Shown one piece after another: positions 4,833 to 29,218 of a stretch of 39,439 nt of DNA. Position numbers and translations under genes: made by a program. Position 1 is the stretch's first letter. Each line of letters starts with the position of its first letter. The notes below the pieces were generated by a model. It made no database searches, was not told where the DNA came from, and was given only the letters and a program-made list of their open reading frames with translations. This DNA comes from Butyrivibrio sp. (GTDB taxonomy: Bacteria > Bacillota > Clostridia > Lachnospirales > Lachnospiraceae): positions 1-39,439 of the forward strand of contig JAILJR010000121.1 of NCBI GenBank assembly GCA_024694565.1, given 5' to 3'.

Positions 4833-5038
4833 GAGTCGCCCGACAAAAGCTCACCAGTCCGGCCCCGGCTGTGCATATTGTACAATCACTTCGGGCACGC
4901 TTTCGCTCCTTTCGCTTCGTAGCGGTACTAAGGCACCAAAATACGGTGCCTAAGTACCGACGAGCTCATAGGGCCGCTCAGCCTCCTGTGCAATATGCAC
5001 AGCCGGAGCCGGCCTGGCGAGCTTTTGTCGGGCGACTC
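4833..5038 (+). repeat. Palindromic element, copy 1 (arm type A)
   Basis: A 206 bp element whose ends, GAGTCGCCCGACAAAAGCTC at the left and its exact reverse complement at 5019-5038, form a perfect terminal inverted repeat extended inward by CCAGTCCGG/CCGGCCTGG and GGCTGTGCATATTG (4867-4880) with CAATATGCACAGCC (4991-5004). The apex is a hairpin, GGTACTAAGGCACC (4924-4937) with GGTGCCTAAGTACC (4945-4958), one A-A mismatch. The asymmetric core at about 4881-4925 (ATCACTTCGGGCACGC...) is shared almost exactly with the other copies. It sits 57 bp before dgt. No clear target duplication is visible at this copy. Confidence 0.9.
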
Positions 5039-5095
5039 ATTGCATAAATAGTAAAAGTAACCCTACTTGATTTCCGATAAAGGGGAAATTCTAAT

Positions 5096-6106
5096 TTGAA
5101 AATCCGTGAAGAACTCGAAGAGAGAGAAAAGACATTTTTAAGCAGTCACGCAAGCCTCAGCATGAACTCAAAGGGCCGCGTCAAGAAGGAGAAGGAATGT
5201 GACATAAGGCCCTGTTTTCAGAGGGACAGGGACAGGATACTGTACTCCAAGTCCTTCAGAAGGCTCAAGGATAAGACACAGGTTTTTTTATCACCTGACG
5301 GCGACCACTACAGGACCAGGATGACCCATACCCTTGAGGTATCCCAGAATGCAAGGACTATAGCCAAGGCACTGATGCTCAACGAGGACCTTACCGAGGC
5401 AATAGCACTTGGGCATGACCTCGGCCATACTCCCTTTGGACATGCGGGAGAGAGAGCACTTAATGCAGTATGTCCTGAGGGCTTTCGTCACAACGAGCAG
5501 AGTCTTCGCATTGTGGAGAAGCTTGAGAACTACGGCAAGGGACTCAATCTCACCTGGGAGGTTAGAAATGGAATTGTCAACCATGAGATTAACCTGACTC
5601 CCGCTACCCTTGAGGGCAAGGTGGTGAGGCTCTCTGACAAGATCGCATACATGCATCATGACATGGATGATGCCATCAGGGGAGGACTGATAACCGAGAG
5701 TGATGTGCCCAAGGATCTTGCCAGGATCATTGGAAGCAGCAAGGGAGAGTGGCTGGATACCTTCATTCATGACATCATCGCGACCAGCATGGATATGGAT
5801 GATATCAGGATGTCCGGGCCTGTATATGACGCTTTTCACAAGCTCAGACAGTTTATGTTTGCAAAGGTCTATACCAACCCAACTGCCAAAGGCCAGGAGG
5901 GGAAGGTTGAGGAGATGATCAAGATCCTCTACAGGTACTATGTGGAGCATCTGAGCGTTCTTCCCGATTATCTTCTGGAGATGGTTGATGGAGGAGAGTG
6001 CAGCAGGGAGAGAGCGGTCTGCGACTATGTGAGCTCGATGACCGACAGATATGCAGTTGCAGCATTTGAAGAGGTATACGTGCCAAGGTCATGGGCAGTG
6101 CTCTGA
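5096..6106 (+). CDS. dgt: Deoxyguanosinetriphosphate triphosphohydrolase-like HD-domain protein
   Basis: An HD-superfamily dNTP triphosphohydrolase of 336 residues (family about 330-350) that hydrolyses dNTPs to deoxynucleoside and triphosphate, trimming cytoplasmic dNTP pools. Metal-binding residues are visible as His78 (RMTHTLEVSQ), His107-Asp108 (ALGHDLGHTPFGHAGE) and Asp181 (VVRLSDKIAYMHHD). The start appears to be TTG at 5096, supported by AGGGGA at about 5081-5087; the MKIREELEEREK opening fits the family and no ATG lies nearby. It leads the dgt-dnaG-rpoD-trmK cluster typical of Firmicutes, 84 bp before dnaG. Palindromic element copy 1 lies immediately upstream. Confidence 0.93.
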   Translation: MKIREELEEREKTFLSSHASLSMNSKGRVKKEKECDIRPCFQRDRDRILYSKSFRRLKDKTQVFLSPDGDHYRTRMTHTLEVSQNARTIAKALMLNEDLTEAIALGHDLGHTPFGHAGERALNAVCPEGFRHNEQSLRIVEKLENYGKGLNLTWEVRNGIVNHEINLTPATLEGKVVRLSDKIAYMHHDMDDAIRGGLITESDVPKDLARIIGSSKGEWLDTFIHDIIATSMDMDDIRMSGPVYDAFHKLRQFMFAKVYTNPTAKGQEGKVEEMIKILYRYYVEHLSVLPDYLLEMVDGGECSRERAVCDYVSSMTDRYAVAAFEEVYVPRSWAVL

Positions 6107-6190
6107 ATTATTTCAGCCTTGAAGGCTTAACTATCCTGACCCAAATGTCGAAAAACATAAAGACTGCTGCGCAGGTAAACGGGGGCAACA

Positions 6191-7969
6191 ATGTACTATT
6201 CAGATCAGATAATAGAGGAAGTGCGCTCACGTAATGACATTGTGGATATAGTCGGACAATATGTCCATCTCAAAAAGCAGGGAGCTAATTACTTTGGTCT
6301 TTGTCCGTTTCACAATGAGAAATCAGGCTCTTTTTCGGTATCTCCGTCCAAGCAGATTTTCTATTGCTTCGGATGCGGAGCCGGAGGCAACGTGATCTCA
6401 TTTCTTATGAAATATGACAACCTCACATTTGGTGAAGCGCTCAAACAGCTGGCGGAAAGGGCAGGGGTCAAGCTCCCAGACGAGGACAACTCCCCACAGG
6501 CCAGGGCCTTCAGGGACAAGAGACAGCTTCTTCTTGATATAAACAAGGAGGCTGCCAGGTACTACTACATGAACCTCAGGTCAGAGCAGGGCCGCAAGGG
6601 AATGGAATATTTCAGACAGAGGGAGCTGACTGATGAGACCATGAAGCATTTCGGTCTCGGATACGCAAGTATAACCTCTGATCAGATTGTCAGATACTTA
6701 AAGAGTAAGGGCTACAACGATTCACAGATCATAGAGGCGGGCCTTGCAGCCTTTGATGAGAAGAGAGGCACTCACGACAAGTTCTGGAACAGAGTGATGT
6801 TCCCGATCCTTGACGCACAGAGCAAGGTTATAGGCTTCGGCGGCAGAGTGCTGGGAGATGGCAAGCCCAAGTATCTCAATTCACCTGAGACACCGATATT
6901 CGACAAGAGCCGGAACCTTTTCGGACTCAATTATGCCAAGAACTCAAGGGCGCCCTATATGATAATCTGTGAGGGCTACATGGATGTCATAGCCATGCAC
7001 CAGGCAGGGTTTGACATGGCCGTAGCTTCTCTTGGAACAGCCTTTACCTCCGGACAGGCCATGATACTAAAGCGTTACACCGACACTGTGATCCTGTCCT
7101 ACGACAGCGATGAAGCCGGTACCAAGGCCGCCCTTCGCGGGATAGGCATCCTCAAGGAGGCCGGTATCAAGGGAAAGGTTCTGGACCTCAGACCATACAA
7201 GGATCCGGATGAATTTATCAAGAACCTCGGAAAGGAAAAGTTTAAGGAGCGCATAGACAACGCTGAAAATACCTTCTTTTTTGAAGTCAGGGTAATGGAG
7301 TCGGGGCATGACATGTCCGATCCTGTCTCCAAGACGGAGTTCTACAGAGAGCTGGCTGTGAAGCTCTGTGAGTTTGAAGAAACACTGGAGAGGGACAATT
7401 ATCTTGAGGCTGTAGCAGCTAAGTACAACATCGCAGTAAACGATCTCAAAGCCTTAGTAGTGCAGACAGCTTCCAAAGGAATAACTGCAAAACCCATAGA
7501 GAGGCCCAAATCAGGTATCCACAGGAAGACAACACCTGAGGACAATGCCAAAAAGAACCAAAGGCTTCTTCTTACATGGATATCCGATGAGCCACAGATC
7601 CTGCCCAAGGTGGCAAAGTGGGTGAGCCCTTCGGATTTTTCGGATGACCTGTACAGGAGTGTTGCTGCTGAGATATTTGAGAGTATGAACAGCGGCGGCT
7701 TTTCGCCGGCAAGGATACTCGACAGGTTCACCGATGAGGAACAGCACCGGCAGATCTCAGAGATGTTCAACACATCTCTTGTGGAGATTGATACACCTGA
7801 TGCCAGGAGGAAGGCGTTCCATGACATCATCTATTCTGTAAAGCTCTCGGGATACGAGAGACAGAAAAAGGAGATGAAGCCGGATGATCCCGACTTTCTT
7901 ATTAAGACTATCCAGGGCAAGAAGGACCTGGAAAAGCTGGCACACATGGATATTTCACCTGATGACTGA
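6191..7969 (+). CDS. dnaG: DNA primase
   Basis: DnaG synthesises the RNA primers for the replication fork and is recruited by the replicative helicase DnaB. The 592-residue length is normal. Domains in order: a CHC2 zinc-binding domain (Cys38, His41, Cys59 and Cys62 in LCPFHNEKSGSF...FYCFGCGAGG); the Toprim catalytic core with ICEGYMDV (catalytic Glu) and SYDSDEAG (metal-binding Asp-x-Asp); then a helical C-terminal helicase-binding region, of lower conservation. A linker at about residues 437-460 is Lys/Pro rich. It starts at ATG 6191, preceded by GGGGGCAAC, and sits 99 bp before rpoD. Confidence 0.97.
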   Translation: MYYSDQIIEEVRSRNDIVDIVGQYVHLKKQGANYFGLCPFHNEKSGSFSVSPSKQIFYCFGCGAGGNVISFLMKYDNLTFGEALKQLAERAGVKLPDEDNSPQARAFRDKRQLLLDINKEAARYYYMNLRSEQGRKGMEYFRQRELTDETMKHFGLGYASITSDQIVRYLKSKGYNDSQIIEAGLAAFDEKRGTHDKFWNRVMFPILDAQSKVIGFGGRVLGDGKPKYLNSPETPIFDKSRNLFGLNYAKNSRAPYMIICEGYMDVIAMHQAGFDMAVASLGTAFTSGQAMILKRYTDTVILSYDSDEAGTKAALRGIGILKEAGIKGKVLDLRPYKDPDEFIKNLGKEKFKERIDNAENTFFFEVRVMESGHDMSDPVSKTEFYRELAVKLCEFEETLERDNYLEAVAAKYNIAVNDLKALVVQTASKGITAKPIERPKSGIHRKTTPEDNAKKNQRLLLTWISDEPQILPKVAKWVSPSDFSDDLYRSVAAEIFESMNSGGFSPARILDRFTDEEQHRQISEMFNTSLVEIDTPDARRKAFHDIIYSVKLSGYERQKKEMKPDDPDFLIKTIQGKKDLEKLAHMDISPDD

Positions 7970-8068
7970 AGTTAAATTCGCAAAGGCAATTGTGATGAAG
8001 GGAACTGATACGAGAGCATGTTTCATACAGTTCCACCATCATTAAAAAAAATAAAAGGATGGCGGAGA

Positions 8069-9538
8069 ATGGCAACTAAAAAAGAGACAGAAACAAAGAC
8101 AAAGATCACTGCAAAGAAGGCTGAGGAGTCGCTTGACGGCATGGCTATGGAAAAGGGCTCTGCAAAAGGGGAGACCAAAAAGTCCTCAAAACAGCTGCAG
8201 GCAGCAGTAGCTTCCGGTCAAGCGGCGCCAAAGAAGAGCGAGACCTCCGAGAAGAAAGCAGGCAGAAAGGGCGGCAAAAAGGGTGATAAGGCCGATCAGA
8301 GCCCAAAGGGTGCTAGTACTGACGGCAGGCTTGATGATGCGACCAGAGAGCTCTTTCAGCAGAAGATCAAGGAAATTCTTGCACTTGCCAAAAAGAAAAA
8401 GAACATGCTCGAGTATGCAGAGATCAGTGATTTCTTTGCAGAGCTCGGACTTAATGAGGAGCAGCTTGACAATGTCCTTGAGGTTCTCGAGAACTCCGGA
8501 ATTGATGTGCTTCGGGTAACAGATGCAGATGATGACATTCCCGAGGATGATGAGGTCATTCTCTCAGATGAGGATGAGGTTGACATGGAGAACCTGGACC
8601 TCTCCGTTCCGGATGGAATCAGTATTGAGGATCCTGTAAGGATGTACCTAAAGGAAATCGGTAAGGTTCCGCTTCTTACTGCTGAGCAGGAAATCGACCT
8701 TGCCAAGGCCATGGAAGCCGGGATTGATGCCGAGAAGGAGCTTGCAGACGACGAGGGTAAGAACGAGCTGTCCTCTGAGAGAAGGAAGGAACTTGACCAG
8801 ATCATCTATGAAGGTGAGGAGGCCAAGAAGCGCCTGGCTGAGGCAAACCTTCGTCTGGTTGTCAGCATAGCCAAGAGATATGTGGGACGTGGAATGCTCT
8901 TCCTTGACCTTATCCAGGAAGGCAATCTCGGACTTATAAAGGCTGTCGAGAAGTTTGATTTCAGAAAGGGCTTCAAGTTCTCGACCTATGCAACCTGGTG
9001 GATCAGACAGGCCATTACAAGAGCCATTGCCGACCAGGCAAGGACCATCCGTATCCCTGTACATATGGTAGAGACCATCAACAAGCTCATCCGTGTAAGC
9101 CGTCAGCTTCTGCAGGAGCTTGGACGTGAGCCTCTTCCTGAGGAGGTTGCAAAAGAGATGAATCTTCCTGTTGAGAGGGTGAGAGAGATACTCAAGATCT
9201 CACAGGAGCCCGTTTCGCTTGAGACTCCCATCGGTGAGGAGGAGGACAGCCATCTCGGCGATTTCATTCAGGACGACAATGTTCCTGTACCTGCCGATGC
9301 TGCAGCATTTACCCTTCTCAAGGAGCAGCTGGTTGAGGTTCTCGACACTCTGACAGAGCGTGAGCAGAAGGTGCTTCGCCTAAGATTTGGCCTTGACGAT
9401 GGCCGCGCGAGAACTCTTGAGGAAGTAGGTAAGGAGTTCAACGTAACCCGTGAGCGTATCCGTCAGATCGAAGCCAAGGCCCTGAGAAAGTTGCGTCACC
9501 CAAGCCGCAGCCGCAAGCTCAAGGACTATCTTGACTGA
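8069..9538 (+). CDS. rpoD: Primary RNA polymerase sigma factor (SigA/RpoD)
   Basis: The vegetative sigma-70 factor that directs RNA polymerase to housekeeping promoters. Region 2 is textbook ([47 protein letters not shown]); region 3 ([14 protein letters not shown]) and region 4 ([15 protein letters not shown], then the helix-turn-helix ending [20 protein letters not shown]) follow. I chose ATG 8069 ([10 protein letters not shown]), which has AAAGGA nine bases upstream, over ATG 8018, whose ribosome binding site is too distant. The first ~95 residues are an unusually Lys/Ala/Ser-rich, probably disordered extension before the acidic region-1.1-like part. trmK follows after a one-base gap. Confidence 0.97.
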
Positions 9539-9539
9539 T

Positions 9540-10601
9540 ATGAGTAAAGAGAAGCTAAGCAGGCAGGATGCACAAGAACGCCAATGCTTCCAATCACCCG
9601 ATTCCGGAATTGCCGACAGGGATACAATGAAAAAAACCGGCATCCAATCTACGGATTACAGAATTGCCGACAAGGATGCGAAGAATTTTTCTTGCATTCC
9701 ATCTTCAGATATCCGGCTTGCCGACAGGGATGCTTCCAAAGAAGCATCCACTGAATTAAATGTACCATCTGCAGCAAAGAATTCTTCTCAGGATGTGGCG
9801 CTTAAGATGTCAAAAAGGCTCATCACAGTAGCAGACATGCTGGGCGAGGTAAAAGGAGAGCGATCTTCCAAATCAGCTTGCAGCACAGAAGATCCCCTCT
9901 GTAGCTACAGATGTGTTGCTGACGTGGGCTGTGATCACGGCTACGTCTCAATCTATCTGGTCCAGAAGAAGATGGCAGCCTCCTGCCTGGCCATGGATGT
10001 CCGAAAGGGTCCCCTTGGCATGGCAGAGAAAAACATAGAAGAGTACCGCCTTTCAGATAAAATAAAAGTCCGACTCTCCGATGGCCTTTCGGGCCTGGCT
10101 CCCGGCGAAGCTGATGCCCTGGTCATAGCAGGCATGGGAGGCAAGCTGATGATAAGCATCCTCGATAAAATGGATCTGTCTCTTCTTGGAATCAAAACAA
10201 TGGTTCTCCAACCCCAGTCAGACCTTGAAGAATTCAGGCGCTACATTCTGGATGCAGGCTTTGCGGTAGAAGACGAGAGAATAATCTGCGACGAAGGCAA
10301 GTACTATTTCCCTATGCGTGTCAGTGTATATCCATCAGACACCTCCGGGAACGATGCATTATCGCTCCTGTCAGATCGGATTCCAAAGGACAGAGCCCTC
10401 TGTCTGCACTTTCGCTACGGAGCCTCCAACATCCTCCGTCAGGATCGTACATTTATATCTTACCTGCTCCACGGCCGCGAAGTCACCACCTCCATCCTGA
10501 AAACCTTAAACCCCAATTCCCATCCTGACCGCTATCTTCAGTTGAAAGAAGAATTGGAAGATATCAATTACCTGCTGTCAGGTTTTGAAAACGGACTATA
10601 A
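9540..10601 (+). CDS. trmK: tRNA (adenine22-N1)-methyltransferase with a repeat-bearing N-terminal extension
   Basis: A class I SAM-dependent methyltransferase of the TrmK/DUF633 family that makes m1A22 in tRNA. The conserved core begins at MSKRLITVADM (ATG 9807), followed by the SAM-binding VADVGCDHGYVSIYLV, ALVIAGMGGKLM and MVLQPQSDLEEFRRYI. The 353-residue length far exceeds the usual ~230, because of a ~90-residue N-terminal extension containing three imperfect repeats built on S-x-D-x-(G/R)-(I/L)-A-D-(R/K)-D. A short hydrophilic insert (KGERSSKSACSTEDPLCSYR) also precedes the first Rossmann strand. Start is ATG 9540, one base after the rpoD stop, giving tight coupling; if the internal ATG 9807 is used instead, the protein has normal length. 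Confidence 0.88.
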   Translation: MSKEKLSRQDAQERQCFQSPDSGIADRDTMKKTGIQSTDYRIADKDAKNFSCIPSSDIRLADRDASKEASTELNVPSAAKNSSQDVALKMSKRLITVADMLGEVKGERSSKSACSTEDPLCSYRCVADVGCDHGYVSIYLVQKKMAASCLAMDVRKGPLGMAEKNIEEYRLSDKIKVRLSDGLSGLAPGEADALVIAGMGGKLMISILDKMDLSLLGIKTMVLQPQSDLEEFRRYILDAGFAVEDERIICDEGKYYFPMRVSVYPSDTSGNDALSLLSDRIPKDRALCLHFRYGASNILRQDRTFISYLLHGREVTTSILKTLNPNSHPDRYLQLKEELEDINYLLSGFENGL

Positions 10602-10626
10602 AACAACTTTAAGTGAAAAATTTAAT

Positions 10627-10830
10627 GAGTTGCACGACAAAAGCTCGCCAGTACAGCTCAGGCTGTGCATATTGCACAAGCAACTGAGTGGCCCTGTGAG
10701 CTCGTCGGTACTTAGCGAGGTATTTTCGAGCTTAGTACCGCTACGAAGCGAAAGGAGCGAAAGCGTGCCCGAAGTGATTGTACAATATGCACAGCCGGAG
10801 CTGTACTGGTGAGCTTTTGTCGGGCAGCTC
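10627..10830 (-). repeat. Palindromic element, copy 2 (arm type A, inverted orientation)
   Basis: Same family as copy 1 in opposite orientation: the reverse complement of its core (about 10735-10795) matches copy 1 nearly base for base over some 60 bases. Outer arms (GAGTTGCACGACAAAAGCTC at left, complement at right) pair over about 34 bases with two mismatches. It starts 25 bp after the trmK stop. ATTTAAT occurs directly outside both ends (10620-10626 and 10831-10837), a probable target duplication. Confidence 0.9.
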
Positions 10831-10861
10831 ATTTAATTCGAATTGTTAAATGTTTGAGTGA

Positions 10862-10998
10862 GGCCAAACAATATGTGCAAACGCTGAGAGGCCCTTGCGA
10901 GCGGTCGGCACTTAGCGACCGTACTTTGGTCGCTTAGTACCGTTACCAGCGAGCAGGAGCGAAAGCGTGCCCGAAGCGCTTGCACATATTGTCTGGCC
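10862..10998 (-). repeat. Palindromic element, copy 3 (short, arm type C)
   Basis: About 137 bp, 31 bp after copy 2. The core (GAGCAGGAGCGAAAGCGTGC region, about 10950-10975) matches the family, and the apical hairpin is GCGACC/GGTCGC around GTACTTT. The outer arms are unrelated to types A and B: GGCCAAACAATATGTGCAA at left pairs with TTGCACATATTGTCTGGCC at right. No target duplication seen. It lies 39 bp before the nucleoside kinase gene and so would be in its mRNA leader if co-transcribed with trmK. Confidence 0.85.
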
Positions 10999-11037
10999 GG
11001 GCAAAATAATAATCCACTTCAGAAAAAAGGAGCCTCT

Positions 11038-12690: not shown

Positions 12691-12768
12691 TAAAACTTCG
12701 GCACTTTGAGCTGAGCACAGGAGTGTTGCCGGCTGTCAGCTGAATCGTAAACCTGGATTAGGCTGAGA

Positions 12769-12797
12769 TTGACAATTTCACCTTAAGCTTTTAAAAT
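12769..12797 (+). promoter_or_regulatory. Sigma-A promoter of rnpB
   Basis: A consensus -35 TTGACA (12769-12774) and -10 TAAAAT (12792-12797) with the ideal 17-base spacer, placing the start site at the mapped 5' end of the RNase P RNA around 12804-12807. Confidence 0.88.
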
Positions 12798-12806
12798 GTA
12801 CATTCG

Positions 12807-13171
12807 TGAGCAGAATGGATGATCGCTGCCACGCAGACGAAAGGGCGTGGGAGAGGAAAGTCCGGGCTTCATAGGGCAGGATGCCAGATAACGTCTGGTG
12901 GAGGCAACTCCCAGGCCAGTGCAACAGAAATATACCGCGTAAGCAATGGGGCGGGCAACCGCTCATTGACCGTAAGGGTGGAAAGGCAGTGTAAGAGACT
13001 ACCGTGCTGGTGGTAACATCAGTAGCCATGTAAACCCCATCCGAAGCAAGACCGAGAAGAGGACCATGAACCGGCCCGGTTCGTCCTCAGGTGGGTCGCT
13101 TGAGGCTGTCGGCGACGGCAGTCCTAGATAGATGATCATCCCCGACATAACCCGGCTTACAGTTCTGCTCA
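12807..13171 (+). ncRNA. rnpB: RNase P RNA (M1 RNA)
   Basis: The catalytic RNA that cleaves 5' leaders from pre-tRNAs. Universal landmarks are present: GAGGAAAGTCCGGGCT near 12851, TAGGGCAGGATGCCAGATAACG, CAGTGCAACAGAAATATACC, GGTAAACCCCATCC-type strand, CCTAGATAGATGA and ACCCGGCTTA near the 3' end. The ends pair (TGAGCAGAA 12807 onward with TTCTGCTCA up to 13171), forming P1. Helix sequence and order resemble the ancestral type A more than the Bacillus type B. The usual ACAGAA near the 3' end reads ACATAA, a variant. A strong promoter and a terminator bracket it as a single-gene transcript. Confidence 0.96.
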
Positions 13172-13196
13172 CTAAAAAAAGATATATTCAAATTTG

Positions 13197-13231
13197 AAAG
13201 AACATCTGTAAATATGGATGTTCTTTTTTTT
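13197..13231 (+). terminator. Rho-independent terminator of rnpB
   Basis: AAAGAACATC (13197-13206) pairs with GATGTTCTTT (13217-13226) and is followed by a T-run. It lies about 25 bases after the RNase P RNA. Confidence 0.88.
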
Positions 13232-13281
13232 ATAGCCATATTATACTAGGAATGAGGTTTTGTAATTTGATTTAACTAATA

Positions 13282-13404
13282 AGAGCCGGGAGGAAATATT
13301 TGAAAATGTATATGCGAGCCGGCTCGGGAAGATGCATTTTCAAATATTTCCATTTGGCGGATATCCGATAGCAGGGAAACGCCCGCGTTTATGAGTCCTG
13401 GCTC
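13282..13404. repeat. Nested inverted repeat before the GH94 gene
   Basis: GGAAATATTTGAAAATG at 13292-13308 has an exact 17-base reverse complement at 13335-13351, separated by a spacer containing the palindrome GAGCCGGCTC. An outer pair, AGAGCCGGGA (13282-13291) and TCCTGGCTCT (13395-13404), encloses it with one mismatch. It could be a hairpin in the GH94 mRNA leader, a bipartite operator for the phosphorylase genes, or another small palindromic repeat family; nothing here decides. Confidence 0.75.
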
Positions 13405-13442
13405 TGAACAGTTACAATTTGATTAAGAAAGGGACAGATACA

Positions 13443-16181: not shown

Positions 16182-16301
16182 GTTTTTCTGATACAAAGAG
16201 CCGGATACCGTAAGCGCACATTAATTTGGCGCCTTCGGATTCCGCATCCGACCGGATTATTCCGGATATAAAACGGCATTTTTAGATGAGGAGAAAAATA
16301 C
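16182..16301 (+). other. Structured spacer between the two phosphorylase genes
   Basis: A 120 bp gap rich in CCGGAT/ATCCGG words in both orientations (for example around 16202 and 16248-16265), able to form alternative hairpins. There is no T-run, so it is probably not a terminator; it may tune expression of the second gene. The ribosome binding site GAGGAG for the next gene lies at its end. Confidence 0.4.
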
Positions 16302-19367: not shown

Positions 19368-19370
19368 TCA

Positions 19371-19470
19371 CTTAGTAAAGCTATCGTCGGGCAGGAGCAA
19401 AAGCGTGGCGGAGGAACCAGCACATATGCACAGTCGGAGCCGGATGGGCGAGCTTTTGACGTCCGGCCCC
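19371..19470 (-). repeat. Palindromic element, copy 4 (decayed half)
   Basis: Only one half of the family is left: CTTAGTA, GGCAGGAGCAAAAGCGTGG, CACATATGCACAGTCGGAGC and GCGAGCTTTTGACGTC align in order with the core and right arm of copies 1 and 2, with many substitutions. The other arm is missing, so it can no longer fold. It lies in the gap between the phosphorylase and truA. Confidence 0.7.
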
Positions 19471-19498
19471 AAGATTCCTGCATTAAAAGAGAGGAAAT

Positions 19499-20251: not shown

Positions 20252-20353
20252 GAAACGATCGTTACAATATGTGGCATTGTAAATTCTGTTGTTTTTGGTA
20301 TCATAAAATAAGCGTAATATTTTAGAGAAAATAGGAAAAAAGTGGGGATTTTT

Positions 20354-21964: not shown

Positions 21965-22018
21965 AACTATCCCGGGGCATAAGGCTCATCTGAAATCCGG
22001 CTGAGGCCGGGGCGGAAT

Positions 22019-22112
22019 AGTTTATGACAGCCGACATCCGGATCGTAGCAATTTATGACTGCAGGCAGCTTGACCTGAGTAATTTATGATTGCCGGCATC
22101 CGGATTGCGGCA
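22019..22112 (+). repeat. Short tandem-like repeats in the spacer before the glycosyltransferase
   Basis: TTTATGACAGCCGACATCCG (22021 onward, about 30 bases) recurs at 22083-22112 as TTTATGATTGCCGGCATCCG with the same spacing of GGAT and GCA behind it; a shorter third copy, TTTATGACTGCAGGCA, lies between at 22052-22067. The spacer has no gene. Function unknown; could be decayed intergenic repeats or protein-binding sites. Confidence 0.6.
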
Positions 22113-22148
22113 GGATTCGCCCTACATCATAAGATAGGAATATAATAA

Positions 22149-23867
22149 ATGCGGATTATCGATTATTATAATTATATAGCTACGGCTGTTTACATCCTTG
22201 TGGGTGTGGCAGCCGTTGTGGCTTTTTATAAGGGAAAGAAGACTAAGAGAGCAGATTTTAGTGACAGGACAGCCATGATACTTTTTGCATTGATCATGGT
22301 GCTGGCTTCATTCTTAAGGCTGTATAAGCTTGGAGAGGTTCCTCTTGGGCTGCAGCAGGATGAGGCTTCTATCGGTTATGACGCGTATACGCTTGCAACC
22401 TACGGCATAGACAGAAATGGCTATCACTGGCCGGTTTATCCCATTACCTGGGGCTGCGGCGGAGGAAGTCCCCTGCTCATTTATATCAATGTGATAACGA
22501 TTTCGCTATTCGGAACAGGAATCGTCAAGCTCAGGCTCATACCGGCAGTTCTTGGGATAATTACAGTTGCGCTGTTTTACTGGAGCCTGCGGCTCATATT
22601 TGAGAACAGAACAGGAAGAAATATTTTATCACTCCTTGGAGCCCTGTTTCTTGCTGTCTGTCCATGGCACATAATTCTCTCAAGGTGGAGCCTTGACTGC
22701 AACATAATGCCCTTTAATATGATGGCAGCTCTGCTTCTCTATCTCTATGCTGCCAAAAAGAAGAGTACGCTCCTGTACTGCCTGAGCGCAGCGGCATTTG
22801 CCGTGTGCATGTACAGCTATGGTGCGGCAACTATCATAGTTCCGCTGTTTCTTTTGATGATATGCATTTACTCCGTAAGGGAGAAGGTCCTGACGATCAG
22901 GGCTCTTATAGCTTCTTTTGTGACCTTCATGGTGGTCTTTGCGCCGCTCCTGTTGTTCTATGGGGTTAATTATCTGGGACTTCCGGAAATTGTAACACCC
23001 TATGTGTGCTTCAACAGATTTACAGCTGCGAGAACGGGAGAGGCATTTCTTGCATTTGATGCATCTCTTCCCGGAAAGCTTTTTAACAATATAAGGTCAC
23101 TTTTCCTGGCTCTTTCCATAGGAGACAGCTCCTATACAATGGCACATTACTATGACGGCTATGCCTGCCTTTTCGAGTTTACATTCCCTATAACGGCTAT
23201 AGGACTTATCCTGTGCATAAGGGATGTATTTGGGAAAAAGAATGCGGACGAAGCAGGCTCCTTGTACCGGATCGGAAGTGCAGCTTATCTTTTCTTCATA
23301 ATAGGCTCGGCAGTTTTGGAGCTTGTCATCGTGCCTGATGTCAGCAGGCTCGTTATGCTGTTCATACCGGCGATTTTCCTTTTTGTCCGTGGCGCTGCCT
23401 TCGTCTATGAGAATGTAGGGAAACTGCTTGTGGTTGTCGTTGCCTTCCTGCTTGTTGGAGGGGTGTCTTTTTCAAAAGACTATTTCACAGATTACAGCAG
23501 ATGGGCTGTGAGCATCTATATGCCGGGCTATGGTGATGCTATAAAGAGAGCCTATGAGGTGGCAGGAGATGAGAGGACTGTTTACTCAACCTATGATGGT
23601 CTGTCTTCGCCCTTTATGCTGGCGCTTTACTACAATGAATATGATCCTTATAAGTTCTTTCAGACTGTAGTATACAAAGATGAGAAGGCTGAATTTCGAA
23701 TTGCTGAGTCTTTTGGAAACTTCATTTTTAAGCTGCCTGAAGAAATTTTAGCCGGCGAAAATGAGGACGCAGTCTTCGTTCTGTCAAGTGGTGACATTGG
23801 AAATATTGAATTGCCTGAAGACTGTAAAGTAGAGGATTTTGGCGGGTACTGGGTAGTATATAAATAG
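22149..23867 (+). CDS. Multi-spanning membrane glycosyltransferase, GT39/ArnT-PMT type
   Basis: An integral membrane protein of 572 residues with about ten to twelve hydrophobic segments, of the PMT/ArnT-like (GT-C fold) superfamily, which move a sugar from a polyprenyl-phosphate carrier to an acceptor on the outer face of the membrane. The first extracytoplasmic loop carries the expected acidic motif in VPLGLQQDEASIGYDAYTLA, followed by the GYHWPVYPITW segment and WHIILSRWSLDCNIMPFN. The last ~100 residues form a soluble extracellular tail. Preceded by AGGAAT and starting at ATG 22149. Donor and acceptor are not recognisable; the neighbouring secreted proteins suggest cell-surface polymer assembly. 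Confidence 0.8.
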   Translation: MRIIDYYNYIATAVYILVGVAAVVAFYKGKKTKRADFSDRTAMILFALIMVLASFLRLYKLGEVPLGLQQDEASIGYDAYTLATYGIDRNGYHWPVYPITWGCGGGSPLLIYINVITISLFGTGIVKLRLIPAVLGIITVALFYWSLRLIFENRTGRNILSLLGALFLAVCPWHIILSRWSLDCNIMPFNMMAALLLYLYAAKKKSTLLYCLSAAAFAVCMYSYGAATIIVPLFLLMICIYSVREKVLTIRALIASFVTFMVVFAPLLLFYGVNYLGLPEIVTPYVCFNRFTAARTGEAFLAFDASLPGKLFNNIRSLFLALSIGDSSYTMAHYYDGYACLFEFTFPITAIGLILCIRDVFGKKNADEAGSLYRIGSAAYLFFIIGSAVLELVIVPDVSRLVMLFIPAIFLFVRGAAFVYENVGKLLVVVVAFLLVGGVSFSKDYFTDYSRWAVSIYMPGYGDAIKRAYEVAGDERTVYSTYDGLSSPFMLALYYNEYDPYKFFQTVVYKDEKAEFRIAESFGNFIFKLPEEILAGENEDAVFVLSSGDIGNIELPEDCKVEDFGGYWVVYK

Positions 23868-23948
23868 TTTATTACAAAAATGTTACAATGGTAAAAATAG
23901 AATTAAATAACATTTGCCACTATGGAAAGCTCTGCCAAATTCGTCTAT

Positions 23949-23962
23949 AGTGTTAATACACT
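23949..23962. promoter_or_regulatory. Possible operator upstream of the small secreted protein gene
   Basis: AGTGT-TAAT-ACACT is a short inverted repeat about 50 bases before ATG 24015, in an AT-rich stretch where a promoter would be expected. Weak evidence only. Confidence 0.25.
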
Positions 23963-24014
23963 CTTAATTAAGTTTTTAATGAGGTGTGAATAACGGCTTT
24001 GGAGGGTTCATGGT

Positions 24015-24683
24015 ATGAGGAGAAAGGTATTATCTGTTGTTTCTGTTGGAATCGCTTTGGCAGCTTTTTTGTCTGTAAATCTGTCCGTAGGAAGCGCGTG
24101 TGCAGCACCGGCTCTTGCTGATGGCATATCCGTCGAGGAGGAGTATTTAATTCCCGATGAGTGCGGACTTTCAAGTTATTACGTAATTGTTGCAAAAAAT
24201 AACACCGGCGAGGATGTAGCGGTTGATGCTGATTTCTTTGCAAAGGATTCATCAGGCAATACCGTTATGAAGGTGAACGACTACTCAGAGGCAGTTGGCA
24301 AGGATCAGACCTTTATCCTCTACGGTCAGTTCAGAAATTCCAAAGTTGAAAATGCAAAGGACTATGAGTACTCACTTACAGTAAAGCAGACAGACAGATG
24401 CGCCTATACTTCAATTGACGTAACTCCCGACAATGAGGAGGAATGCCTCAGCGTCAGTGCCCGCAACAATTCAGACTTTGATGTAAACGGCGTCGGAGTA
24501 AGGACTATTTTCATGAAGGACGGCAAGGCTGTTGGCTTTGATACCGTGAACATCGCCGATGTCGGAACAACCTTCAAAAGCGGAAGCACCAACTCACAGG
24601 AGCTTGGGTTAAATGCCTCTGATTACGACGACTTCATCCTCACCTACACATCCTGCAGTGATGTGGCACTTGGGGATCTGTAA
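24015..24683 (+). CDS. Small secreted protein with FxLYD-like beta domains
   Basis: A 222-residue exported protein: signal peptide MRRKVLSVVSVGIALAAFLS...ACA-AP with a likely cleavage around residue 33. The mature part consists of two similar segments with YYVIVAKNNTGEDVAVDADF...DSSGNTV and LSVSARNNSDFDVNGVGVRT...KDGKAV, the pattern of FxLYD/DUF-type immunoglobulin-like folds in which N-N-(T/S) precedes paired strands. Function unknown; such domains usually mediate surface binding or anchoring. The ribosome binding site GGAGGG is eight bases before ATG 24015, and a strong terminator follows, so it may be a single-gene transcript or end of the glycosyltransferase operon. Confidence 0.75.
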   Translation: MRRKVLSVVSVGIALAAFLSVNLSVGSACAAPALADGISVEEEYLIPDECGLSSYYVIVAKNNTGEDVAVDADFFAKDSSGNTVMKVNDYSEAVGKDQTFILYGQFRNSKVENAKDYEYSLTVKQTDRCAYTSIDVTPDNEEECLSVSARNNSDFDVNGVGVRTIFMKDGKAVGFDTVNIADVGTTFKSGSTNSQELGLNASDYDDFILTYTSCSDVALGDL

Positions 24684-24700
24684 TAAAAAGTAGATTCTAT

Positions 24701-24756
24701 AAAGAATGGATGTCACTTTCGTGCTTATTCCAAGCAGCCGACATCCATTCTTTTTC
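24701..24756 (+). terminator. Rho-independent terminator
   Basis: AAAGAATGGATGTC (24701-24714) pairs exactly with GACATCCATTCTTT (24740-24753), followed by TTT. It ends the transcript of the secreted protein gene. Confidence 0.88.
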
Positions 24757-24872
24757 ATTGCACTCAAAGGGACGTCTCTTTTGGAGGATTTCATAGTATA
24801 TCTCTGACTGTATGAATTGTTCGGACAATCCAAAGCGCTGAATATTCTATATATTCCCTTTATTTGAAATTC

Positions 24873-24881
24873 TGATACAAT
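24873..24881 (+). promoter_or_regulatory. Possible extended -10 promoter before the ene-reductase
   Basis: TG-A-TACAAT reads as an extended -10 about 325 bases before the next gene. If used, palindromic element copy 5 would sit in the 5' untranslated leader. No convincing -35. Confidence 0.3.
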
Positions 24882-24904
24882 GGTTATATCTATTTAATCC
24901 TGAT

Positions 24905-25110
24905 GATGTTGAGGTCAAAAGTCACCTGGTGGCTCCGTGGCTGTGCATATTGCACAAGCAGCTGAGAGGCCCTTGTGAGCGGTCGGTACTTAGAGGCCGT
25001 ACTTTGGCCTCTTAGTACTGCTACCAGCGAGCAGGAGCGAAAGCGTGCCCGAAGTGATTGTACAATATGCACAGCCATGGAGACACAAGGTGGCTTTTGA
25101 CCTCAACATC
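24905..25110 (-). repeat. Palindromic element, copy 5 (arm type B)
   Basis: A 206 bp copy with ends GATGTTGAGGTCAAAAG and CTTTTGACCTCAACATC, pairing inward with few mismatches through GGCTGTGCATATTG and CAATATGCACAGCC. Core and apical hairpin (GAGGCC/GGCCTC around GTACTTT) match copy 6 almost exactly in opposite orientation. Flanks are ATCCTGAT (24897-24904) and ATCCCGAT (25111-25118), an 8 bp target duplication with one change. It lies in the leader region of the ene-reductase gene. Confidence 0.92.
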
Positions 25111-25206
25111 ATCCCGATGTGATAATACTTGAATGAGGCAGGATAGAATTCACAGGATAACTGTGAGTTTCACTGTCGGCTCATTATATAAAAAGGAGCA
25201 ACCTGA

Positions 25207-27273
25207 ATGAATCAGAATTTATCCTCTCTTATGAGGCCGTGGAAGATAGGTAAATGCGAAATTAAAAACAGGATTGTCATGACATCAATGGGCGGAACCA
25301 ATCTTCTTGGCTGGATGGAAAGGAACCATTTTGACAAAGAGGGCGCCGAATTCATACTTAAGGTTGCTCAGAATAATGCAGGTCTGTTGCTTCCGGGCTG
25401 TCAGTGTGTCTACAATCCCATGTATGGACAGTGGCTCTATGAGAACAGGCAGATGTACAGAGACCTTGCCGACTGGATGCCAAAGCTTCACAAGACCGGT
25501 GCAAAACTGTTTATCCAGCTGACAGCCGGGTTTGGCAGATCCTTTACCGTGACACCGGTCATGGAGAAGATTTATAATAATCAGACTCTTCGCTCACTGA
25601 CCAAGAGGATAATGGACATTGATAAGATAACAGCCTGTCCAAGTCCCGCACCCAACAGATGGTCCGATAAGGTTCCATCAAGGGAGATGACAAAAGAGGA
25701 AATAAGGGAGATGGTAGAAGCCTTTGGCAGAAGTGCAAAGCTCCTGATGGATGCGGGTGTGGACGGAGTCGAGATCCATGCCGTACATGAGGGCTATCTT
25801 CTTGACCAGTTTACCCTTCCTTATGTTAACAGGCGGACAGACGAATATGGCGGATCCTTTGAGAACAGATACAGATTTGCCGTTGAGATTGTCAGGGAGA
25901 TAAAGAGCAGGTGCGGAGAAGATTTTCCTGTTTCCATGAGATACAGTGTCATTTCCAGGACCAAGGGAATGAGGCAGGGAGCACTTCCGGGTGAAGAGTA
26001 TACCGAAGTCGGAAGGGACTTTGAGGAGTCAAAAAAAGCAGCTAAATATCTGCAGGATGCCGGAATAGATATGCTTAACTGCGACAATGGAACCTATGAT
26101 GCCTGGTACTGGTCTCATCCGCCCATCTATATGCCAAAGAACTGCAACCTGGAGGACGTAATAAGGCTGCGCAGATACATTGATATCCCCGTTGTATGTG
26201 CCGGACGACTTGATCCTGAGACTGCTGCGCTTTCCATTGACAGAGGAGAACTTGACGGAGCCGGCTTTGCGAGACAGTTTCTTGCTGATCCCGAGTGGGT
26301 GACAAAGCTGATGGAGGACAGAGAAGAGGACATAAGGCCCTGTATACTTTGCCACAACGGGTGCTTTACCATGTGCCACTACAAGGGTGTCCCCAATGAC
26401 CAGCCTCTTGAGGACTCGCTTCATCTTGCGAGATGTGCAGTCAATGCTGAGACAATGCAGACCAAAAAGCATTTCATAAAGGAGTCGAGGCGCAAAAAGA
26501 CTATCCATATAGTCGGTGGCGGCATCGCAGGGATGGAAACAGCGAGGGTATGTAAGCTTCGCGGTCACAATCCCATTATCTACGAAAAGGGCGACGCACT
26601 GGGGGGAACACTTATCGCTGCAAGCTCCGAATCCTACAAGGACAAGCTTCGTGACCTTCTCAAATGGTACCGTAGACAGATGGAGGTACTTGGGGTAGAG
26701 GTTCATTTAAATACTGAGATTGATGATCCGAGGAAGTTCGGCAGAAAAAGCGACATAATAATAGCAACTGGCGCAAGACCAAGAATACTGACACAGGTCA
26801 CCGGACATGAGAAGATGACGGAGGCCTGCGACTATTTGAATGGCACACTGGTAGGTGACAGAGTAGCTGTTATAGGTGGAGGACTCACCGGCTGTGAAAT
26901 AGCTTACGAGCTTGCATTAAAGGGCAGACACCCTGTTATTGTGGAGATGAAGGATGACCTGATCTCCCAGCCCGGTGTCTGTCTCGCCAACAGCTCTTAT
27001 CTCAGGGAATATTTTGCACTTCATTCTGTTCCCGTATACCTTGAAACGTCTCTTAAGGAAGTGGGAGATGACTTTATCGTCTGCACTGACCGGGATGGAA
27101 AAGAGATAAGGTTAGACTGCGACAGCGTCATCTGTTCAGCCGGTTACATAGCGGATCCCGTTATCAAAGAGAATGACCGCACCAGCAACATGGACTATGT
27201 GGGAGACTGCTGGAAAGTAGGAAACCTCCGCACAGTAATCTGGCGCGCCTACGAAGTCGCCATGAGACTTTAA
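25207..27273 (+). CDS. NADH:flavin oxidoreductase / 2,4-dienoyl-CoA reductase-like (old yellow enzyme, FeS)
   Basis: A 688-residue cytoplasmic enzyme with the modular architecture of bacterial 2,4-dienoyl-CoA reductase and bile-acid/enoate reductases: an FMN-binding TIM barrel (about residues 1-370; GVDGVEIHAVHEGYLLDQF and NRRTDEYGGSFENRYRF are family signatures), a [4Fe-4S] cluster motif CxxCxxxC...C (CILCHNGCFTMC, with a further Cys in ARCAVNAE), and a C-terminal FAD/NAD(P) domain with two dinucleotide-binding loops (IVGGGIAGMETAR, VIGGGLTGCEIAYE). It probably reduces an activated C=C bond; substrate unknown. The ribosome binding site AAAAGGAG precedes ATG 25207. A bidirectional terminator separates it from the convergent transporter operon. 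Confidence 0.9.
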   Translation: MNQNLSSLMRPWKIGKCEIKNRIVMTSMGGTNLLGWMERNHFDKEGAEFILKVAQNNAGLLLPGCQCVYNPMYGQWLYENRQMYRDLADWMPKLHKTGAKLFIQLTAGFGRSFTVTPVMEKIYNNQTLRSLTKRIMDIDKITACPSPAPNRWSDKVPSREMTKEEIREMVEAFGRSAKLLMDAGVDGVEIHAVHEGYLLDQFTLPYVNRRTDEYGGSFENRYRFAVEIVREIKSRCGEDFPVSMRYSVISRTKGMRQGALPGEEYTEVGRDFEESKKAAKYLQDAGIDMLNCDNGTYDAWYWSHPPIYMPKNCNLEDVIRLRRYIDIPVVCAGRLDPETAALSIDRGELDGAGFARQFLADPEWVTKLMEDREEDIRPCILCHNGCFTMCHYKGVPNDQPLEDSLHLARCAVNAETMQTKKHFIKESRRKKTIHIVGGGIAGMETARVCKLRGHNPIIYEKGDALGGTLIAASSESYKDKLRDLLKWYRRQMEVLGVEVHLNTEIDDPRKFGRKSDIIIATGARPRILTQVTGHEKMTEACDYLNGTLVGDRVAVIGGGLTGCEIAYELALKGRHPVIVEMKDDLISQPGVCLANSSYLREYFALHSVPVYLETSLKEVGDDFIVCTDRDGKEIRLDCDSVICSAGYIADPVIKENDRTSNMDYVGDCWKVGNLRTVIWRAYEVAMRL

Positions 27274-27285
27274 AAAGCATAAAAC

Positions 27286-27334
27286 AAAAAAGTTCCCTGA
27301 ACACTGGCAAAGGCCGTTGTTCAGGGAACTTTTT
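27286..27334. terminator. Bidirectional rho-independent terminator
   Basis: AAAAAGTTCCCTGAACA and its exact reverse complement TGTTCAGGGAACTTTTT flank a 14-base loop. T-runs exist on both strands, serving the ene-reductase gene and the convergent ABC transporter operon. Confidence 0.92.
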
Positions 27335-27401
27335 CCATTAAAGACATGTGGCAGCCTGCGGCATCTTTTCCTGACCGTGATGGCTGCCGAATCTATAATC
27401 T

Positions 27402-28160
27402 TTACTTCGAACTATGCACATTTGACAAAAACTGTCTTGTTCTGTCGCTTTTTGGATTGTCTATGACTTGTTCGGGAGATCCTTTTTCGACGATTACTCC
27501 GCCATCCATGAAGATAACCTCATCCGATACATTCCTTGCGAAGCTTATCTCGTGTGTTACGATTATCATTGTGGTATGCTGACTTGCAAGCTCTCTTATA
27601 ACCTTTAATACTTCCCCTGTAAGCTCGGGATCAAGAGCAGAAGTGGGCTCGTCAAAGCACAGTATATCCGGCTTAAGAGCCAGAGCCCTGGCAATCGCAA
27701 CCCTTTGCTGCTGACCACCTGACAACTGGTGGGGATAGTTGCCCATTCTGTCAGAGAGCCCCATCTTATCGAGAAGGAGCTTTCCATCGTCGATGATATC
27801 CTGTCTGTTTCTGCTTTTATCATTGAGAAGTGGGGCAAGAGTAACATTCTCAAGAGCTGTATACTGCGGGAACAGATTAAACTGCTGGAACACCATTCCG
27901 AAGTGAAGGCGCCTTTTGCTCAGTTCAGTATCGCTCAGGTTTTGCTGGTCTCCATCAAACAGTATCGTTCCGTTTACACTTATCTTTCCATTGTCAGGTG
28001 TCTCCAAAAAGTTGAGGCACCGAAGGAGAGTAGTCTTGCCGCTTCCGGAGCTTCCCAGAATAGAGACTGCCTGCCCTTTCTCCATGTCAAAGGATATTCC
28101 CTTTAATACTTCTATATTTCCAAAGCTTTTTTTGATATCTCTTACTTCAAGTATTGCCAT
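27402..28160 (-). CDS. Polar amino-acid ABC transporter ATP-binding protein
   Basis: The ATPase subunit (GlnQ/HisP type, 252 residues) powering amino-acid import. All ABC motifs are visible: Walker A GSSGSGKTT at about residue 36, Q-loop MVFQQFNLFP, signature LSGGQQQR, Walker B ILCFDEPTSALDPE, and switch His in IIVTHEI. It is the last gene of the operon SBP-permease-ATPase on the minus strand, 60 bp after the permease gene. The start ATG at 28160 is preceded only by a weak GGCGGTG, so it may be less translated. A strong terminator follows. Confidence 0.95.
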   Translation of the reverse strand: MAILEVRDIKKSFGNIEVLKGISFDMEKGQAVSILGSSGSGKTTLLRCLNFLETPDNGKISVNGTILFDGDQQNLSDTELSKRRLHFGMVFQQFNLFPQYTALENVTLAPLLNDKSRNRQDIIDDGKLLLDKMGLSDRMGNYPHQLSGGQQQRVAIARALALKPDILCFDEPTSALDPELTGEVLKVIRELASQHTTMIIVTHEISFARNVSDEVIFMDGGVIVEKGSPEQVIDNPKSDRTRQFLSNVHSSK

Positions 28161-28220
28161 TATTTCACCGCCAGAAGATATTTACATTTATTTTTTATGA
28201 ATAAGCCACTGATGAACTTT

Positions 28221-28877
28221 TTATTTAAAGAAGTCCAGCTTCTTCTCTATGTAGCCAAAGAGAAGTGTAAGAAGACCGCTGAACATCAGGTAGAATGCTC
28301 CTGTGTAAAATAAAGGCCAGATGATTCCGGCGCTCTTGATGAAGCGTTCTCCTTCCCAGATGATCTCGTAGAATGCGATTACCCTCGCCAGGGAGGTGTC
28401 TTTTACCAGAGTTATAACTTCATTTGATATGGGGGGAACAATCCTCTTTACAACCTGCAAAAGGATTATCCTGAAAAATGTCTGCGTCTTAGAAAGACCC
28501 AGAACTGCCGCTGCCTCGTACTGACCCTTCGGTATAGACTGAATACCGCCTCTGAAGATTTCGCTGAAATAGCAGGCGTAGTTGATTACGAAGGCAACAA
28601 GTGCGGCGGAAAATCTTCCTGAAGTTCCGGAGCCCCATATATTTTTTCCAAAAAATATGCCAGGGCCGTAGAAGATAACAAGAAGCTGCAGCATCAGCGG
28701 AGTTCCTCTGATTACCCATATAATAAACCTGATTGGAAGCCTGATCACAGGGCTTTTGCTCATTGAACCAAAGCTTATGATAAGCCCAAGCGGAAGAGCG
28801 AAGAGCAGGGTGAGTGAAAAGAGCTTTAAGGTCTCTAAAAATCCATTCAGTAGTGAGAGAGTAACGGTAATAAACAT
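28221..28877 (-). CDS. Polar amino-acid ABC transporter permease
   Basis: An integral membrane subunit of 218 residues of the HisM/GlnP family, with about five transmembrane helices. The helix-turn ATPase-coupling (EAA) loop reads QYEAAAVLGLSKTQTFFRIILLQ, and the family signatures VIRGTPLMLQL and FVINYACYFSEIFRGGIQSI are present. Only one permease gene is present, so a homodimer is likely. AAAGGA precedes ATG 28877. About 500 bp separate it from the substrate-binding gene upstream, including palindromic element copy 6, a half copy and a terminator-like hairpin. Confidence 0.93.
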   Translation of the reverse strand: MFITVTLSLLNGFLETLKLFSLTLLFALPLGLIISFGSMSKSPVIRLPIRFIIWVIRGTPLMLQLLVIFYGPGIFFGKNIWGSGTSGRFSAALVAFVINYACYFSEIFRGGIQSIPKGQYEAAAVLGLSKTQTFFRIILLQVVKRIVPPISNEVITLVKDTSLARVIAFYEIIWEGERFIKSAGIIWPLFYTGAFYLMFSGLLTLLFGYIEKKLDFFK

Positions 28878-28910
28878 AGCTGTTCCTTTGCATTGTATTT
28901 GTATTCAGAT

Positions 28911-29116
28911 GATGTTGAGGTCAAAAGTCACCTTGTGTCTCCATGGCTGTGCATATTGTACAATCACTTCGGGCACGCTTTCGCTCCTGCTCGCTGGTAG
29001 CGGTACTAAGAGGCCAAAGCACGGCCTCCAAGTACCGACCGCTCACAAGGGCCTCTCAGTTGCTTGTGCAATATGCACATCCACGGAGCCACCAGGTGAC
29101 TTTTGACCTCAACATC
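28911..29116 (+). repeat. Palindromic element, copy 6 (arm type B) inside the ABC transporter operon
   Basis: A 206 bp copy with the ends GATGTTGAGGTCAAAAG and CTTTTGACCTCAACATC. It is flanked by a perfect 8 bp direct repeat, ATTCAGAT, at 28903-28910 and 29117-29124, the clearest target duplication in the window. Core and arms match copy 5, in the opposite orientation. It lies between the substrate-binding protein and permease genes, so transcription of the permease must cross it. Confidence 0.95.
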
Positions 29117-29139
29117 ATTCAGATCAATGAGATGAGATG

Positions 29140-29218
29140 ACCTCTCAAGGGCATTCCATTTGCCTGTGCACTATGCACAGCCGAAGCTGACCGGGCAGGA
29201 CTTTGTCGCCCGTATCAT
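29140..29218 (+). repeat. Palindromic element, copy 7 (decayed half)
   Basis: CCTCTCAAGG, GCCTGTGCACTATGCACAGCCG, and CAGGACTTTGTCGCCCG..ATCAT align in order with the non-core half and type A end of copy 1. The other half is missing. It sits 23 bp after copy 6, so this gap has received at least two insertions. Confidence 0.65.

What the first reader, a model, noticed from the sequence alone, without database searches (positions are those of the whole stretch)
4833..29218. A family of structured palindromic intergenic elements, five full copies and two halves in 25 kb
Copies at 4833-5038, 10627-10830, 10862-10998, 24905-25110 and 28911-29116, plus halves near 19371-19470 and 29140-29218, share one layout: outer inverted arms, an inner GGCTGTGCATATTG/CAATATGCACAGCC stem in most, an asymmetric unpaired core with CACTTCGGGCACGCTTTCGC, and an apical hairpin framed by GGTACT/AGTACC-like words. 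All are between genes and occur in both orientations. That density suggests a major repeat family of this genome. I know of no named family with this sequence.
Basis: seen in the sequence. Interest (0 to 1): 0.85.

Follow-up and report, generated by a model that had tools for sequence, protein, structure and literature searches.

The report
Mobile folded DNA repeat in Lachnospiraceae
The repeats are copies of an apparently unnamed mobile element, about 140-350 bases long, whose elaborate folded core is kept across many genera of one gut-bacteria family while its ends differ between lineages, which is the reverse of what small transposons usually keep.

Summary
The window has five full copies (206, 204, 137, 206, 206 bp) and two fragments. 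Its genome, a Butyrivibrio draft, has 113 hits (up to 2 mismatches) to the 16-base core, 0 for the reversed control.

A covariance model of the inner 137 nt hits 40 of 61 Butyrivibrio genomes and 65 of 392 in the order, 32 of 173 genera, all in one family, read as Lachnospiraceae. No Rfam family reaches its threshold on a copy.

In 34 matches, 30 from other genera, 40 of 43 base pairs show compensatory changes. Many copies have target-site duplications: mostly 7-8 bp here (19 of 47; controls 1.4%), 9-15 bp in other genera with different ends (22 of 45; controls 0.95%). They are mobile, non-autonomous elements of MITE type.

The unusual part is what is conserved: the folded core persists while ends and duplication length change between lineages. 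No autonomous partner or empty site was found. I infer that the fold is needed in cis for mobility; a host role near mRNA 3' ends is the main rival.

The parts
4833..5038 (+). Full copy, A-type arms (GAGTCGCCCGACAAAAGCTC...GAGCTTTTGTCGGGCGACTC), 206 bp; no clear target-site duplication
10627..10830 (-). Full copy, A-type arms, 204 bp; flanked on both sides by ATTAAAT as read on the core strand (7-bp duplication)
10862..10998 (-). Short form (D type): core plus inner GGCC...GGCC stem, no outer arms, 137 bp
24905..25110 (-). Full copy, B-type arms (GATGTTGAGGTCAAAAG...), 206 bp; flanks ATCGGGAT/ATCAGGAT on the core strand (8 bp, 1 mismatch)
28911..29116 (+). Full copy, B-type arms, 206 bp; perfect 8-bp target-site duplication ATTCAGAT
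28903..28910 (.). Left copy of the target-site duplication ATTCAGAT
29117..29124 (.). Right copy of the target-site duplication ATTCAGAT
19371..19470 (+). Degenerate fragment: right half of an A-like copy
   Evidence: weak, E 0.013
29140..29218 (+). Degenerate fragment: right half of a copy, directly downstream of the B-type copy; not found by the model
4867..5003 (+). Inner unit used for the model: inner stem, GGGC pairing, CGCTTTCGC mini-hairpin, stem P3 with bulge, GTAGCGGTACTAAG/CTAAGTACC apical hairpin P4

Best explanation
It is a family of non-autonomous mobile elements of MITE type, 137 to about 350 bp, carried by many genera of one bacterial family (read as Lachnospiraceae). Shown: an asymmetric folded core of about 110 nt (arm stem, 3-4 bp GGGN/N'CC helix, a mini-hairpin whose loop reads T-Y-N-C, a stem with a bulge, and a long apical hairpin) is kept by compensatory changes across genera; around it sit long palindromic arms whose sequence differs between lineages; many copies have target-site duplications, so they were inserted. 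Inferred: copies are moved in trans by one or more transposases coded elsewhere, and the core is the part the machinery needs in cis, as folded single-stranded DNA (cruciform or lagging strand) or as RNA, which would explain why the core and not the ends is conserved. I put mobile-and-structured at about 0.9 and a cis role of the core in mobility at about 0.4. After insertion some copies appear to lose their middle between short repeats at the arm tips, leaving fragments (inferred from remnants that keep their duplication).
For: Copy number, both orientations, zero control hits. Target-site duplications: in this genome 19 of the 47 copies with both outer ends and readable flanks score >=6, against 1.4% of 5000 mismatched flank pairs; perfect lengths 7 (11 copies), 8 (6), 6 (1), 11 (1) (list). 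Among copies with ends AGNNNNTTGCGAAACTC from four genomes of four other genera, 22 of 45 pass, against 0.95% of 2000 mismatched pairs; the 22 come from three of the genomes (14 from G393, 6 from G342, 2 from G339), the 16 perfect ones are 9-15 bp, with up to 2 bases slack at each end, and one of the 45 (L283, 245 bp) is a mis-paired end. Fold: 32 of 44 pairs with changes on both sides in 39 copies; 40 of 43 in 34 matches not used for the model (30 from other genera, 4 from two further Butyrivibrio genomes), score 0.838 against shuffled 0.192 and at most 0.127 for slid versions (alignment fitted to the model, which leans towards it). RNAalifold on its own finds 42 pairs, 31 with such changes. 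Tetraloop T-Y-N-C in 90 of 90 non-redundant copies, two of them with one extra closing pair and three with T-A instead of C-G closing. All inverted end pairs printed enclose the core, a rearranged or interrupted core, or, in the shortened forms (L270, L274, L280), remnants or arms only. Recent amplification elsewhere: 58 hits in G025; the 15 read are near-identical in two subtypes.
Against: No autonomous element or transposase was found: the one 1.2-kb stretch between B arms holds a VanY-like gene (name by eye), and the two Y1 transposase genes have no copies within the 3.3 kb read around each. No precise empty site was shown: of three typed sites one was followed up, and 10 of 11 relatives' loci aligned to its right flank only, apart from two 20-nt matches. 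28 of 47 copies here and 23 of 45 elsewhere have no convincing duplication. Ends are not always exchanged: four genera share one end type. Loop exceptions exist among this genome's near-duplicates that the filter dropped, e.g. TTTT in L018 and L099. Butyrivibrio relatives carry old copies with unrelated arms, some at shared loci, which fits retention for a host function as well as decay. That the core acts in transposition is not tested at all.
Confidence: 0.7

Rival explanations
1. A structured RNA with a host role (mRNA 3'-end protection, processing or termination) that is conserved for that role and only incidentally hitch-hikes on various MITE ends.
For: In 67 distinct copies outside this genome with 300 nt of flank on each side, the left side meets a gene end 35 times and a gene start 26 times; the gene ends lie a median of 28 nt before the model's first base; divergent gene pairs are few, 5 of 44 with both neighbours called, and 1 of 33 in the Butyrivibrio relatives alone, where shared loci were not merged. 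G.T pairs exceed A.C mismatches in stems P3/P4 on the core strand, 46 to 19. A T-run follows the core-strand end in 9 of 47 Butyrivibrio relatives against 1 of 47 on the other strand.
Against: No strand preference in the arms, 44 G.T to 48 A.C, and the reverse in P2, 5 to 13; in this genome's arms 127 to 120. The loop rule T-Y-N-C reads as GNRA on the opposite strand, which points the other way. T-runs are rare in this genome (2 of 76) and in the second, mostly other-genus set (2 of 32, 2 of 32 on the other strand). In this genome gene ends and starts are balanced on the left side, 31 to 33 of 77.
Confidence: 0.25
2. A retroposon-like element: the folded RNA is the mobile form, copied back by a reverse transcriptase in trans, a bacterial analogue of SINEs.
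For: RNA-like fold under covariation, no longer element with the same ends among the hits listed for G339, G342 and part of G393 (read by eye; the listing was cut and shows none of G408's 35 hits), and duplications of variable length, 9-15 bp.
Against: Both ends are inverted copies of each other as in DNA transposons; duplications in this genome are 7 or 8 bp in 17 of 19, mostly with AT at both ends; no reverse transcriptase was looked for; no 3' tail seen.
Confidence: 0.08
3. Ordinary MITEs: several unrelated MITE families whose internal resemblance arose by recombination or gene conversion between them.
For: Copies with unlike arms occur, 9 of 47, of which 5 join A with B and 4 join A with the similar E; in several places elements abut and share one duplication.
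Against: The core is found in 32 genera with compensatory changes in nearly every pair, which conversion between copies of one genome does not give.
Confidence: 0.12

Closest known systems
Bacterial MITEs such as ERIC, RUP, Correia/NEMIS (reviewed in PMC2229807, passages seen)
   Same: Short, non-coding, inverted terminal repeats, target-site duplication, intergenic, strong hairpins; RUP is given there with 108 copies in one genome
   Different: Most of those have TA at their termini; here the ends and the duplication length differ between lineages while the inner core persists across genera
REP/BIME repeats with RAYT transposases, GTAG- and CGTC-tagged (PMC3733652, abstract and passages seen)
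   Same: Palindromes near gene ends in high copy; an apical hairpin that here is often preceded by GTAG on one strand (36 of 67 parsed copies, 23 of 90 not parsed)
   Different: REPs are 20-40 bp and no duplication is mentioned in the passages seen; ours are 137-350 bp with duplications; the two Y1 transposase genes here are not flanked by copies
Mobile/repeat sequence candidates such as MRSC-65-2 (PMC11109978, passages seen)
   Same: Multi-copy, strongly covarying, orientation not fixed, suspected selfish, possibly active as DNA
   Different: Described there as a single long stem with UYCCGG repeats; ours has a branched asymmetric core with other conserved words. Sequences were not compared
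bcr1 repeats of the Bacillus cereus group (recalled; papers only seen as a search listing)
   Same: Recalled as about 155-bp mobile repeats with a conserved fold and target duplication
   Different: Other bacteria; no sequence comparison made

Membership tests
MITE (general class) | Terminal inverted repeats | tested here: met
   Arms 88-93% complementary over 54-64 nt in four window copies; the 137-bp form lacks the outer arms
MITE (general class) | Target-site duplication | tested here: met
   19 of 47 here and 22 of 45 elsewhere, against 1.4% and 0.95% in controls; the rest show none
MITE (general class) | No coding capacity of its own | tested here: met
   Elements read are 137-353 bp, too short for a transposase gene
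MITE (general class) | Shares terminal repeats with an autonomous transposon | tested here: inconclusive
   None found in this draft (82% complete) or among the hits listed, a cut list; a partner may lie in unassembled or unlisted sequence
REP/RAYT elements | 20-40 bp palindrome with GTAG tag next to a RAYT gene | tested here: not met
   Length 137-350 bp; tag variable, GTAG in 36 of 67 parsed, 23 of 90 not parsed; two Y1 genes not flanked by copies
Any Rfam family | Score over the curated threshold | tested here: not met
   Only RNase P in the window; relaxed search of one copy gave six sub-threshold matches, best mir-214, 27.4 bits, threshold 66.7
Intrinsic terminator | Stem followed by a T-run | tested here: not met
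   2 of 76 copies here, 2 of 32 in the mostly other-genus set, 9 of 47 in Butyrivibrio relatives
ISfinder MITE families | Sequence match | not testable with these tools
   No such database on hand

The most novel reading that the evidence does not exclude
The core is a cis-acting fold, RNA or single-stranded DNA, that defines a family-wide mobile lineage able to change its terminal repeats and thus its transposase, or that moves through an RNA copy as a bacterial SINE; the unit of inheritance is the fold, not the ends.
Probability: 0.2. Interest if true: 0.93.

Novelty: new variant of a known kind. Interest (0 to 1): 0.72.

Why it matters
If right, an abundant repeat of rumen and gut Lachnospiraceae has gone without a name in the sources searched here. 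It breaks assemblies: nine contigs of this genome begin in a copy. It also poses a testable question: why does a miniature transposon keep an elaborate folded interior across a bacterial family while its ends differ between lineages? Answers would bear on how non-autonomous elements capture transposases and on how structured DNA or RNA serves mobility.

Tried and rejected
Rfam: nothing over threshold. RAYT/Y1 transposases: two genes, no copies beside them. Autonomous partner by terminal arms in this genome, then stretches read: shortened derivatives, other neighbours and a VanY-like gene between B arms. Autonomous partner by the AGNNNNTTGCGAAACTC ends in four other genomes: in what was listed and read, only core elements, variants with extra hairpins in the apical part, and shortened forms. 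Phages and plasmids: no match for one copy each. Copies about 1 kb apart in G001 looked like transposon ends but flank a polysaccharide-deacetylase-like gene (name by eye); the G031 pair has like flanks, so it is an old shared locus. Orientation to genes: not clear enough to prove a 3'-UTR role. Strand test: contradictory signals; wrongly included four antisense matches and was redone; helix labels are approximate because alignment A1 has 44 pairs and the others 43. Empty site in relatives: not shown. One search used a narrower filter, kept 11 of 25, and is not used for counts. One search's automatic 40-bp figure for L139 paired the wrong repeats; the remnant is 20 bp as read. Rows dropped: 12 of 42 cluster representatives judged broken were left out of alignment A1; 82 of 172 matches were dropped as near-duplicates, after four antisense matches; copies cut by contig ends were left out of contexts and flank tests. 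BLAST scored 40 of 230 candidates.
Full report
WHAT WAS SEEN. The five full copies and two fragments are present as described. Two arm types and one armless form occur in the window: A (GAGTCGCCCGACAAAAGCTC) at 4833-5038 and 10627-10830, B (GATGTTGAGGTCAAAAG) at 24905-25110 and 28911-29116, and the short form at 10862-10998.

GENOME-WIDE. The window is one contig of a 3.47-Mb draft of 249 contigs, 82% complete. The 16-mer GGGCACGCTTTCGCTC with up to 2 mismatches hits 58 times forward and 55 reverse, control 0. BLAST with one copy gives 98 matching pieces, many of them the two strands of one palindrome, with 40 of 230 candidates scored. A arms hit 167 times and B arms 73 with up to 2 mismatches, and several of those sites have no core. 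A script over the fetched stretches kept 101 distinct core sites, not all full copies.

ORGANISM. An exact core pattern in named genomes hits 13 stretches: ten in records titled Butyrivibrio, three in other assemblies titled Lachnospiraceae (two) or Eubacterium (one). The family is called Lachnospiraceae here from established taxonomy of Butyrivibrio, not from a tool label.

FOLD. On 39 copies (30 from this genome, 9 from relatives) a hand-drawn structure of 44 pairs has 91.9% of cells paired, 32 pairs with changes on both sides, score 0.394 against 0.136 shuffled and at most 0.100 for slid structures. RNAalifold agrees for most pairs and adds a CC/GG step that closes a three-way junction around the mini-hairpin. 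On 34 matches not used to build the model, 30 from other genera and 4 (L247, L248) from two further Butyrivibrio genomes, 40 of 43 pairs have changes on both sides and 94.2% of cells pair; the alignment was fitted to the model, which leans towards it, but slid versions reach at most 43.7%. In 90 of 90 non-redundant copies the mini-hairpin loop is T-Y-N-C (two with one more closing pair), third base free and second always a pyrimidine; on the opposite strand that is the GNRA rule. Exceptions occur among dropped near-duplicates of this genome, such as loop TTTT in L018 and L099.

WHICH STRAND. G.T against A.C mismatches on the core strand: arms 44 to 48, P2 5 to 13, P3 and P4 together 46 to 19, the last driven by few positions. 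The GNRA reading favours the other strand. I leave the strand open; a role as DNA, where both strands count, fits the mixed picture.

RANGE. Model R1: 40 of 61 Butyrivibrio genomes; 65 of 392 in the order, 32 of 173 genera, every hit in family f1; 11 of 391 in the class, every hit in f1, and all 11 also among those. Stricter filters lose weak matches, and only 8 candidates per genome were scored in the two large searches. G025 has 58 matches; the 15 read are near-identical in two subtypes and mostly bounded by TATA or TATG.

MOBILITY. In this genome 47 copies have both outer ends and readable flanks; 19 have a direct repeat scoring at least 6, against 1.36% of mismatched flank pairs; the repeats are 7 or 8 bp in 17 of 19 and mostly begin and end with AT. 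In four genomes of other genera, chosen because their copies showed ends AGNNNNTTGCGAAACTC, 22 of 45 pass the same threshold against 0.95%; the 22 come from three of the four, the two G408 copies do not pass, and one of the 45 is a mis-paired end; the 16 perfect repeats run from 9 to 15 bp. Some sites were used repeatedly: ATTCTAA stands three times around two elements in L002, ATAAAAT three times in L127. A 20-bp arm remnant in L139 (read) and a 57-bp remnant in L129 keep their duplications, as expected from loss of the middle after insertion.

WHAT IS CONSERVED. Between lineages the core words (ACGCTYNCGCT, GTAGCGGTACTAA and its variants, TAAGTACCG) stay, while the arms mostly share no recognisable sequence, though four genera share one end type. 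That is why I think the core matters in cis. This is inference; no experiment or partner gene supports it.

LIMITS. No transposase partner, no empty site, no expression data, no ISfinder. Old copies with like flanks at the same loci in G001 and G031 show that some copies are long-lived. Papers: for PMC3733652 the abstract and passages were seen; for PMC2229807, PMC11109978 and PMC8632094 passages only; others only as search listings.

Noticed in passing
L122 (own genome contig C102) 95-1262: A VanY-like (D-Ala-D-Ala carboxypeptidase-like, name by eye) gene of 275 codons lies between two inverted B arms, next to A arms: a possible gene-carrying form or two unrelated remnants.
   Followed up: partly
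L120, L121 (own genome contig C41): Two Y1 (RAYT-like) transposase genes of about 252 and 346 codons, about 9 kb apart, without element copies in the 3.3 kb read around each.
   Followed up: partly
L194, L196, L198, L200, L202, L204, L206, L208, L210, L214, L216 (genome G025): Copies stand next to other hairpin repeats (called Z, X, Y here) with similar CAANAA...TTNTTG tips and short TATA/TATG spacers, seen by eye and motif search.
   Followed up: partly
L267-L269, L271-L273, L275-L277, L281: Variants of 261-353 bp carry extra hairpins inserted in or near the apical part of the fold.
   Followed up: no
L092, L108, L113, L117 (own genome): A C-type arm (CAATTCAGTTGCCAGCC) around the same core, without a visible duplication.
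   Followed up: no
window 9585-9731: Three direct repeats at 54-nt spacing, 72-100% alike over 39 nt, inside the ORF at 9531-10601.
   Followed up: no
window 12807-13175: Class A RNase P RNA, 308 bits.
   Followed up: no
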